This document shows positions 24,801-27,800 of a stretch of 64,000 nucleotides of DNA, in pieces. How positions within the stretch are numbered: position 1 is the first letter of the stretch; every line of letters starts with the position of its first letter. The notes below the pieces were generated by a model. The model saw only the letters and a list, made by a program, of their open reading frames with translations, had not been told where the DNA came from and did not search any database. A program made the translations under genes and the position numbers. Source of the DNA: Kutzneria kofuensis (GTDB taxonomy: Bacteria > Actinomycetota > Actinomycetes > Mycobacteriales > Pseudonocardiaceae). The stretch lies in contig NZ_JACHIR010000002.1 of NCBI RefSeq assembly GCF_014203355.1, forward strand, positions 62,001-126,000, written 5' to 3'.

Positions 24801-27800
24801 GGTCGAATGGCCGCGTGACGGCCGGCCCCGCCGCGCCGGCATCTCCTCGTTCGGCATCAGCGGCACCAACGCCCACGTCATCATCGAGCAGCCGCCGGCC
24901 GAGACCGCCGTGGGGGCCACACGGCCCGACACCGCGCTGCCGTTCGTGCTGTCGGCTCGCGGGCCGGAGGCGCTGCGAGGCCAGGCCAGGCGGCTGCACG
25001 ACTTCCTCGGCGACCAGCCGGAGACGCCGTTGGCCGACGTGGCCTTCTCCCTGGCCACCACCAGGGCACCGCTGGAGGACCGGGCCGTGGTCACGGCCGG
25101 CGACCGCGACGAGCTGCGGGCCGCGCTGCTCGCGCTGTCGGCCGGCGAACCCACCTCCTGGACGGCGACCGGGACCGCCGCCGGCTCGGGTCGGCTCGCG
25201 TTCCTGTTCACCGGGCAGGGCAGCCAGCGGGCCGGCATGGGCAGCCAGCTCTACCGGGACTTCCCGGTGTTCGCCGAGGCCGTCGACGCGGTGTGCGCCG
25301 AGCTGGACCGGCATCTGGACCGCCCGATCCGGGAGGTCATGTTCGACGGCGGGGACCTGCTCGACCAGACCCGCTACACCCAGCCCGGCCTGTTCGTCCT
25401 GGAAGTGGCCCTGTTCCGGCTGCTCGAGCACTGGGGCATTCGGCCGGACTACCTCGCCGGCCACTCGGTCGGCGAGCTGGCCGCCGCCCACGTGGCCGGC
25501 GTCCTGACCCTGCCGGACGCGGCGACCCTGGTCTGTGCCCGGGCCCGGCTCATGCAGGAGGCGCGGCCCGGTGGCGCGATGATCGCCGTGCAGGCGGCGG
25601 AGCAGGACGTGCTGCCGCTGCTGGCCGGGCGCGAGCACCAGGTTGCCATCGCGGCCGTCAACGGCCCGACCTCGCTGGTCATCGCCGGCGACGAGGAGGC
25701 GGCTCTGGAGGTGGCCGCCGAGCTGTCGGCCCAGGGGCGCCGGACCAAGCGGCTACGGGTCAGCCACGCCTACCACTCCCCGCACATGGACGGCGTCCTT
25801 GACGAGTTCCGCGCGGTGGCCGGCGCGCTGACCTACCACCAGCCGACCATCCCGCTGGTGACCTCCGGCGACCCGACCGACCCGGAGTACTGGGCGCGGC
25901 ACATCCGCGAGACGGTCCGCTTCCACGACACGGTGACGACGTTGCACCACAACGGCGTCACCACGTATCTCGAACTGGGGCCGGACGCCGTGCTCAGCCC
26001 GCTGGCGGACCAGAACGCCGCGGTCGCGCCCACGCTGCGAGCTCGGCGGCCCGAGACGCTGTCGCTGTTCAAGGCGGTCGGGACGGCGTACGCGAGCGGC
26101 GTGCCGGTGAACTGGCCCGCGGTGTTCGGACCGGGCGTCCGCACGGTCGAACTGCCCACCTACACCTTCCAGCACCAGCGCTACTGGCTGGATGCGCCGG
26201 CGCCGGCCGCGCGGGAGACCGGTGTGGACGCCGAGTTCTGGCGCCTGGTCGAACGCGCCGACCTCGATCAGCTGGTCGCGTCCCTGGAACTGGGCGAGGA
26301 CCAGCAGCGATCGCTGGGTGCGCTGCTGCCGGCGTTGTCGGCCTGGCGCCGTCGACACCAGTGGCGCTACCGGTTCGGCTGGCAGCCGCTGCCCGGCGGG
26401 TCGGCGCCGGCCCTGACCGGCACGTGGCTCGTGGTCGTGCCCGCCGAGCACGACGGGAACGACCTGGTGACCGCGACGACGGCCATCCTGACTCGGCAAG
26501 GGGCACAGGTCGCCCGGGTGGTCGTGGACACTGAGGACGCGGAGCCCGGTCCGCTGGGCAAGCTGATCGCCGACGCCCTGGTGCACCAGCCATCGGTGGA
26601 CGGCGTGGTGTCGCTGCTGGCGCTGGACGTCCGGCCGCAGCCGAACCGGGCGGCCGTGACCGTCGGGCTGGCCCTGACGGTGGCGCTGGACCAGGCGCTG
26701 CGGGAGGCCGCGATCGACGCCCCGCTGTGGTGTCTGACCCGCGGCGCGGTGTCCACCGGCGGGTCGGACGGGCTGGTCAGCCCGGTGCAGGCCCAGCTGT
26801 GGGGTCTGGGCCAGGCCCTGGCCGCCGACCGCCGGGTCGGCCTGGTCGACCTGCCGGAGGTGCTCGACGACCGGGCCCGGGCGGCGTTGGTCGCGGTGCT
26901 GGCGGCTGCCGATCGGGAGGACCAGGTCGCCATCCGCGGCAACGGCGTGTTCGGCCGCCGGCTCGTCAGGGCCGAAGGCCAGGCCGCGGTCACCCTCGCG
27001 CCGACGGGAACCGTGCTGGTGACCGGCGCCGGAAAGCCGCTCGGCGGGCAGGCCGCCAGGTGGCTGGCCCGCAACGGGGCCGACCATGTGCTGCTCACCG
27101 GCCCGGTCGGCGACGACCTGGTGACCGAGCTGACCGCGTTGGGCGCGACGGTGACCGTGATCGACTGCGATCCGGCCGACCGCGACGCGCTCGCCGCGGT
27201 GCTGGCCGCGCATCCGGTGACCGCGATCGTGCACGCCACGGCGGTGCACGGCGACGCCGAGGCCGATTCGCTCAGCGTCGACCGGATCGACGCCGAGCTG
27301 AGGTCCGAAGTGGACGCCGCGAGGAACCTCGACGAGTTGACCCGGAACCTCGACCTGTCCGCGTTCGTGCTGTTCTCGTGCCTGTCCGGGACGCTGGGCA
27401 CGCCCGGCCTCGGCAACGCCGCCCCGCTGCACGCGTTCCTCGACGCCTTGGCCCACCAGCGGCGGGCGTTGGGCCTGCCCGCGACGTCGGTGGCCTGGGG
27501 TCGATGGGCCGAGCAGGGCGGCACGGCCGAACACCTGGCGCGGCAGGCACTGCGTCCGGTCACGCCCCAGCTGGCCGTCGGCGTGCTGGCACAGGTTTCC
27601 GCGGACACGTCGTACGCGGTCGTGGACTTCGAATGGGACCAGTTCGCGTCGTCCTCCAGCCTGTTCCGCGACCTGGCCCCGTCGCGGCCGCTGCCCCGCG
27701 CCGACGCGCCGGAGGGCCCGGCGCTGCTGCGGCGGCAGCTGGCCGGAACGTCCGAACCCGGCCAGGAGCGGATCCTGCTGGACCTGGTGCGCGGGCACGC

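What the first reader, a model, noticed from the sequence alone, without database searches (positions are those of the whole stretch)
26960..27500. Terminal-module ketoreductase has lost all four catalytic residues
In the last module of the trimodular PKS the KR-like domain has Glu4821, Cys4845, Ala4858 and His4862 where active KRs have Lys, Ser, Tyr and Asn (spacing Cys-Ala 13 as for Ser-Tyr). The NADPH glycine motif is also changed. The other five KRs in the window keep these residues. The predicted result is an unreduced beta-keto thioester at the end of the chain.
Basis: partly seen in the sequence, partly recalled or inferred. Interest (0 to 1): 0.75.

Follow-up and report, generated by a model that had tools for sequence, protein, structure and literature searches.

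The report
Dead terminal ketoreductase before tetronate ring
The last reducing domain of this bacterial polyketide assembly line has lost its four catalytic residues, which should leave the chain end unreduced, and nearby tetronate-ring genes need exactly such an end, so the decay looks real but of a kind already seen in related pathways.

Summary
In the last module (KS-AT-KR-ACP) of the PKS at 12847-28023, the KR has Glu4821, Cys4845, Ala4858 and His4862 in place of Lys, Ser, Tyr and Asn, and the NADPH motif reads VTGAGKPLG. The other five KRs in the window and two more of the same PKS upstream are intact. The predicted fold is kept.

The reason lies outside the window: 17-22 kb upstream of it sits a full glycerate/tetronate cassette (FabH-like, FkbH, ACP, acyltransferase, hydrolase-like dehydratase). 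That chemistry condenses glyceryl-ACP with a beta-ketothioester, so a dead terminal KR is expected. Tetromadurin KR14 is a published precedent.

Comparison added two things. Among 14 multimodular tetronate PKSs, own included, none has an intact terminal KR: 2 full-length dead, 5 truncated remnants, 7 none detectable. All 14 terminal ACPs carry Ser/Thr instead of the Asp of the DSL motif, against 0 of 77 internal ACPs; six single-module relatives keep Asp.

Verdict: real and explained; a new member of a known kind. The ACP signature is the more unusual part.

The parts
12847..28023 (+). trimodular PKS (5058 aa): KS-AT-DH-ER-KR-ACP, KS-AT-DH-KR-ACP, KS-AT-KR-ACP; extension modules 6-8 of the assembly line; 15 aa after the last ACP match, so no thioesterase
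26227..26367 (+). PKS dimerisation element (PF18369) between AT and KR of the terminal module
26362..27651 (+). full KR didomain (structural plus cofactor/catalytic half) of the terminal module; predicted fold intact
27007..27513 (+). Pfam KR match, about 130 bits; catalytic residues lost
27019..27045 (+). NADPH glycine motif changed to VTGAGKPLG (A4728, G4729, K4730 at conserved G, T, G)
27100..27105 (+). conserved Ser-Arg changed to Gly4752-Pro4753 (cofactor role recalled)
27307..27309 (+). Glu4821 in place of catalytic Lys
27379..27381 (+). Cys4845 in place of catalytic Ser
27418..27420 (+). Ala4858 in place of catalytic Tyr
27430..27432 (+). His4862 in place of catalytic Asn
27763..27975 (+). 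terminal ACP, motif GFSSF in place of GFDSL
27871..27873 (+). Ser5009 at the Asp position of the ACP DSL motif (the phosphopantetheine Ser is then 5010)
1778..12835 (+). bimodular PKS (extension modules 4-5), both KRs intact
1..1770 (+). C-terminal end of the PKS with loading module and extension modules 1-3, which starts upstream of the window (contig C2:46158)
31188..32639 (+). FAD-dependent monooxygenase-like protein, a possible tailoring enzyme

Best explanation
The terminal KR of this PKS is a redox-dead KR. It keeps the fold, and hence probably the spacing and scaffold of the module, but can no longer bind NADPH or transfer hydride. Module 8 therefore adds a malonate-type unit and leaves a beta-ketoacyl thioester on its ACP. 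A FabH-like tetronate synthase encoded upstream then condenses that thioester with glyceryl-ACP (made by the FkbH protein on a stand-alone ACP), releasing the chain as a 3-acyl-5-hydroxymethyl tetronate without a thioesterase. The E2-like acyltransferase and the hydrolase-like dehydratase then make the exocyclic methylene. Shown here: the residue losses, the open frame and ordinary codon bias, the predicted fold, the cassette genes, the lack of a terminal TE. Inferred: lack of activity, the beta-keto product, the tetronate and any later [4+2] closure.
For: K/S/Y/N = E/C/A/H with altered NADPH motif. Of 134 columns at least 90% conserved in 30 relatives, 29 are lost, and 10 of the 29 are the glycine motif (3), the Ser-Arg pair (2), the Leu-Asp of the LDD motif (2) and Lys, Tyr, Asn (3). 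GC by codon position is like that of two live KRs of the same protein. Model pLDDT 86; TMq 0.86-0.94 for the 30 best PDB chains, all modular PKS KRs. Complete tetronate cassette upstream, FkbH domain at 294.6 bits over a cut-off of 146.65; its chemistry is reviewed in PMC4979870 (passages). In 14 multimodular tetronate PKSs of the family, own included, 0 of 14 terminal modules have an intact KR. G060, with the same module order, has no detectable KR in its terminal module. [quoted passage not shown] AbyB3 and AbmB3 terminal modules are KS-AT-ACP (PMC3625739; PMC5819245; passages).
Against: No product or enzyme assay was looked up or is known to me for this strain. The loss is not confined to the active site: 39 of 47 conserved columns are kept in the structural half and 63 of 82 in the cofactor/catalytic half, so general decay also plays a part. 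AlphaFold with a family alignment tends to return the family fold even for decayed sequences. Reduction by a KR of another module cannot be ruled out; PMC7489565 suggests such a thing for module 12 of tetromadurin. The terminal AT motif is HAYH, not the usual HAFH, so malonate specificity is likely but not certain.
Confidence: 0.92

Rival explanations
1. The domain is redox-dead but still acts as an epimerase of the alpha-substituent (a C2-type KR).
For: C2-type KRs share the fold; PDB 3qp9, a C2-type KR, is among the Foldseek matches. Loss of NADPH binding is typical of the class (recalled).
Against: The terminal AT is malonate-like (HAYH), so there should be no alpha-methyl to epimerise, and the Tyr and Ser thought to serve epimerisation (recalled) are gone.
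Confidence: 0.02
2. The beta-keto group is reduced after all, by a KR from another module or in trans.
For: Seven KRs with intact catalytic residues lie in the same PKS; such an external action was proposed for tetromadurin module 12 (PMC7489565).
Against: The tetronate condensation uses a beta-ketothioester (PMC4979870), and no terminal module of 14 tetronate PKSs, own included, has an intact KR.
Confidence: 0.03
3. The degenerate sequence is an assembly or sequencing artefact.
For: PKS modules are repetitive and prone to assembly errors (general knowledge); a 1048-base block at 3320-4367 matches 14395-15442 at 1028 of 1048 bases.
Against: The frame is open over 5058 codons with ordinary codon bias; the changes are spread along the domain and need several separate base changes; it has no close copy nearby, the best match in the same PKS being 50% identical. 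Reads were not available.
Confidence: 0.02

Closest known systems
KR14 in the last extension module of the tetromadurin PKS, PMC7489565 (passages read)
   Same: Last module of a tetronate PKS with a KR that lacks the catalytic Tyr; no TE in the PKS; five-gene glycerate-utilisation set; keto group at that carbon in the product.
   Different: Polyether product and 14 extension modules; the passages name only the missing Tyr for KR14, here all four residues and the glycine motif are changed.
Abyssomicin / neoabyssomicin PKS (AbyB1-B3, AbmB1-B3), PMC3625739 and PMC5819245 (passages read)
   Same: First protein with a KS-AT-ACP module plus three DH-KR modules, then a bimodular protein ending in a DH-ER-KR module; malonate-type terminal module without reduction.
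   Different: Seven modules in all, the first KS-AT-ACP included, against nine here; terminal module a separate KS-AT-ACP protein; their KR reported as inactive is in module 5, where here the KR keeps KSYN.
Unnamed relative G060, same family
   Same: Same order of eight extension modules and an adjacent tetronate cassette.
   Different: Terminal module is its own protein and has no detectable KR.
Unnamed relative G069, same family
   Same: Terminal KS-AT-KR-ACP with all four catalytic residues lost (APQQ).
   Different: Further decayed: branch 1.44 against 0.56 changes per column; a different module line-up.

Membership tests
Redox-inactive (KR0) domain of modular PKS | KR sequence family and fold | tested here: met
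   PF08659 at 130.2 bits; TMq 0.86-0.94 for the 30 best PDB chains
Redox-inactive (KR0) domain of modular PKS | Loss of catalytic Tyr and Lys | tested here: met
   A4858 and E4821
Redox-inactive (KR0) domain of modular PKS | Damaged NADPH-binding motif | tested here: met
   VTGAGKPLG; Ser-Arg changed to Gly-Pro
Redox-inactive (KR0) domain of modular PKS | No reductase activity | not testable with these tools
   needs purified protein
3-acyltetronate (glycerate-utilising) biosynthetic cluster | FabH-like, FkbH-like and stand-alone ACP genes | tested here: met
   ACP_syn_III and PP-binding matches; FkbH domain TIGR01686 294.6 bits on the last 417 of 646 aa (no Pfam match on that stretch)
3-acyltetronate (glycerate-utilising) biosynthetic cluster | Agg4/Agg5-like pair for the exocyclic methylene | tested here: met
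   2-oxoacid_dh acyltransferase domain and FrsA-like hydrolase side by side; Agg names are by analogy with PMC4979870, not by comparison with Agg4/Agg5 themselves
3-acyltetronate (glycerate-utilising) biosynthetic cluster | No thioesterase on the last PKS | tested here: met
   15 aa after the terminal ACP match
Spirotetronate cluster | [4+2] cyclase (AbyU or PyrE3 type, names recalled) | tested here: inconclusive
   No PF18678 match at E <= 1 in the genome, but whether AbyU itself matches that model was not checked; a FAD monooxygenase-like protein is present
Spirotetronate cluster | Spirotetronate product | not testable with these tools
   no metabolite data

The most novel reading that the evidence does not exclude
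The terminal modules of multimodular tetronate assembly lines evolved a hand-over end: the KR is switched off and then worn away step by step (dead full-length, truncated, gone), while the last ACP swaps the Asp of its DSL motif for Ser or Thr. That swap marks the last ACP for the trans-acting FabH-like tetronate synthase instead of a downstream KS or KR. The window shows an early stage, with the KR dead but whole. The order of steps is read from a comparison, not from a tree, and the single-module tetronate PKSs, which keep Asp, speak against a universal rule.
Probability: 0.35. Interest if true: 0.55.

Novelty: new member of a known kind. Interest (0 to 1): 0.35.

Why it matters
On its own this is an ordinary, well-explained inactive KR. 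It lets one predict a beta-keto, tetronate-type product from a cluster for which I looked up no product. The comparison makes two things testable: why a dead KR is kept in some lines and eroded in others, and whether a one-residue change in the last ACP directs the chain to the ring-forming enzyme. The latter would help to engineer chain release and to spot such pathways from a single carrier protein.

Tried and rejected
Orthologue of the dead KR: none at E <= 1e-85 in the 6 other genus genomes searched (in one of the six, 150 of 167 candidates were scored). In the 26 other family genomes with the tetronate FabH, the best match was E 4.8e-85 at 51% identity (only 77 candidates were scored in most of these genomes, so a relative may have been missed). 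dN/dS on the dead KR could not be done.

C2-type epimerase and reduction from elsewhere: see rivals. AbyU-type cyclase: no PF18678 match, inconclusive. ORF 32652-33224 as a small cyclase: no family match; it overlaps a reverse-strand FAD monooxygenase-like frame. A first regex count of ACP motifs was wrong because it caught an upstream Gly-x-x-Ser; it was replaced by the aligned-column count. A self-BLAST for repeats listed no block at 93% or more; its longest matches besides the self-match are 6.6 kb at about 75%, so it probably fused blocks; one search measured one block directly.

Family set, rows dropped: 29 FabH-like matches incl. own, in 27 of 297 genomes. DNA was taken for 26 incl. own; G175, G147 and G093 were not fetched. 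14 of 26 gave a multimodular terminal module; 6 have a lone KS-AT-ACP protein beside the cassette (G230, G045, G152, G136, G084, G288; ACPs read by eye as DSL, DSI or DSV) and were left out of the ACP count; 6 gave no terminal module in the stretch held (G162, G141, G109, G293, G108, G241). Terminal modules were picked by hand from layout and short tail.

Papers: passages read in PMC3625739, PMC7489565, PMC4979870 and PMC5819245; all others seen only in listings.

Full report
What is there. The window is contig C2:62001-126000 of a 10.4 Mb genome in 5 contigs. The named loci found with the KR region all carry actinobacterial names. The PKS gene at 12847-28023 encodes three modules, and the last is KS-AT-KR-ACP. 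Its KR (Pfam match 27007-27513) has Glu4821, Cys4845, Ala4858 and His4862 opposite Lys, Ser, Tyr and Asn. This holds in the alignment of the eight KRs of this PKS, against solved chains holding DEBS module 1 and Lsd14, and against 30 relatives. The glycine motif is VTGAGKPLG. The other seven KRs of the PKS, five of them in the window, read KSYN.

Is it more than chance? In 79 loci found with the region itself, 0 of 218 fully covered KR segments lost all four residues; 185 read KSYN, and 28 have Gly or Ala at the Ser position, so Ser alone is a weak sign. In the first 18 tetronate clusters read, own included, 4 of 50 KRs depart from KSYN, and the 2 that lost all four are both in terminal modules. 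Against 30 relatives, the dead KR keeps 105 of 134 columns that are at least 90% conserved (78%; leave-one-out range for the relatives 86-100%, median 96%). Ten of the 29 lost columns are the glycine motif, the Ser-Arg pair, the LDD motif and the catalytic Lys, Tyr and Asn; the other 19 lie elsewhere, and 8 of the 29 are in the structural half. So the active and cofactor sites are gone, but some general wear is there too. GC by codon position is like that of two live KRs of the same protein. The AlphaFold model has mean pLDDT 86, and its 30 best PDB matches, all modular PKS KRs (Lsd14, amphotericin, DEBS KR1, tylosin KR1 and others), have TMq 0.86-0.94. It was built on a family alignment, so it leans towards the family fold.

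Why it is so. Upstream of the window, at C2:40357-45330, lie a FabH-like synthase, an FkbH protein (TIGR01686, 294.6 bits), a small ACP, an E2-type acyltransferase and a hydrolase-like protein, followed by the PKS genes. [quoted passage not shown] A working terminal KR would spoil that step. No TE follows the last ACP, as PMC7489565 says is expected for a tetronate pathway.

Predicted chain (inference motifs and layout): a KSQ loading module and eight extensions, with methylmalonate-type (YASH) ATs in modules 1, 2, 5 and 7, giving a C22 chain plus three glycerate carbons. DH activity was not checked in each module, and the terminal AT reads HAYH.

Relatives. The FabH-like protein was searched in 297 family genomes: 27, own included, have it at E <= 1e-70. 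From 26 clusters incl. own whose DNA was taken, 14 have a multimodular PKS with a readable terminal module. KR state there: own (ECAH) and G069 (APQQ) full-length but dead; G223, G259, G131a, G213 and G166 keep a truncated KR stretch (profile E-values 1e-15, 3e-7, 8e-46, 2e-20 and 2e-21 in a search of 20 sequences) in which the catalytic part is missing or not recognisable; G131b, G060, G254, G119a, G119b, G078 and G256 have none detectable. None is intact. G060 has the same eight-module order as the window but a KR-free terminal module. In the KR tree the window's dead KR, like that of G069's terminal module, lies outside the 46-row group that holds the seven other KRs of its own PKS (support 80/99), beside KRs from the contig scan whose module layout I did not check; nearby forks are unresolved and the bootstrap had not settled. 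Its branch (0.56; median 0.33) is shorter than those of the three other dead terminal KRs in the tree (1.38, 1.44, about 4.6), so it is the least worn of those. Whether the KR died many times or was inherited dead was not settled.

The last ACP. The same 14 terminal ACPs have Ser or Thr at the Asp of DSL (7 SSF, 5 TSF, 1 SSL, 1 TSM). Of 77 internal ACPs in the stretches read, 77 have Asp; of 15 classed as loading by layout, 12 have Asp, 2 Glu and 1 Thr. Fisher's exact p for 14/14 against 0/77 is 9e-17, but related sequences are not independent. The six lone KS-AT-ACP tetronate proteins keep Asp, so the change goes with multimodular lines, not with tetronates as such: a point against a simple recognition rule. 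A second look used the window's terminal ACP as query, which favours its own motif, in the 21 genomes of other families of the class that carry the FabH-like gene at E <= 1e-110 (20 of 21 gave a match, the match list was cut, 30 loci were handed over). Of the 30 loci, 11 have Ser/Thr: 10 end within 50 aa of the ACP and 1 (L297) has a tail of 78. The 19 with Asp all have tails of 51 aa or more, four of them running off the locus. Among the 10 short-tailed ones, 7 have no detectable KR, 2 a long dead KR (V-S-E-V, Ser kept; gap-P-R-E), and 1 a remnant split over two frames; none is intact. Only three of the ten (G579, G538, G503) share a contig with the FabH-like gene, so for the rest the link to a tetronate cluster is not shown.

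What is known. A dead KR in the last module of a tetronate PKS is in print: tetromadurin KR14 (PMC7489565, passages). Terminal modules without KR are in print for abyssomicin and neoabyssomicin (passages). For the ACP change, one search for 'acyl carrier protein' + 'tetronate' + 'DSL motif' found 0 papers, and one for 'inactive KR' + 'vestigial' + 'polyketide synthase' + 'module' found 0. That is thin: most subscription-journal papers are not held.

Verdict. The dead KR is a new member of a known kind. The graded erosion and the carrier-protein signature are the parts worth a specialist's time.

Noticed in passing
window 27871-27873 and relatives: Terminal ACPs of 14 of 14 multimodular tetronate PKSs, own included, have Ser/Thr for the Asp of DSL; 0 of 77 internal ACPs do.
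   Followed up: partly
window 3320-4367 and 14395-15442: Two stretches covering the ATs of modules 4 and 6 are identical at 1028 of 1048 bases, pointing to recent duplication or gene conversion.
   Followed up: no
window 31188-32639 (+) and about 32707-34146 (-): Two FAD monooxygenase-like genes tail to tail, with three P450 genes between 34143 and 40035; possible tailoring or cyclisation enzymes.
   Followed up: partly
L285 (G503): Terminal module with a KR remnant split over two reading frames: frameshift or assembly error.
   Followed up: no
G069 and G119a, KS-AT-DH-KR-ACP modules: KRs with lost catalytic residues (GSAH, QSHA) also occur in non-terminal DH modules of two related tetronate PKSs, as reported for abyssomicin module 5.
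   Followed up: no
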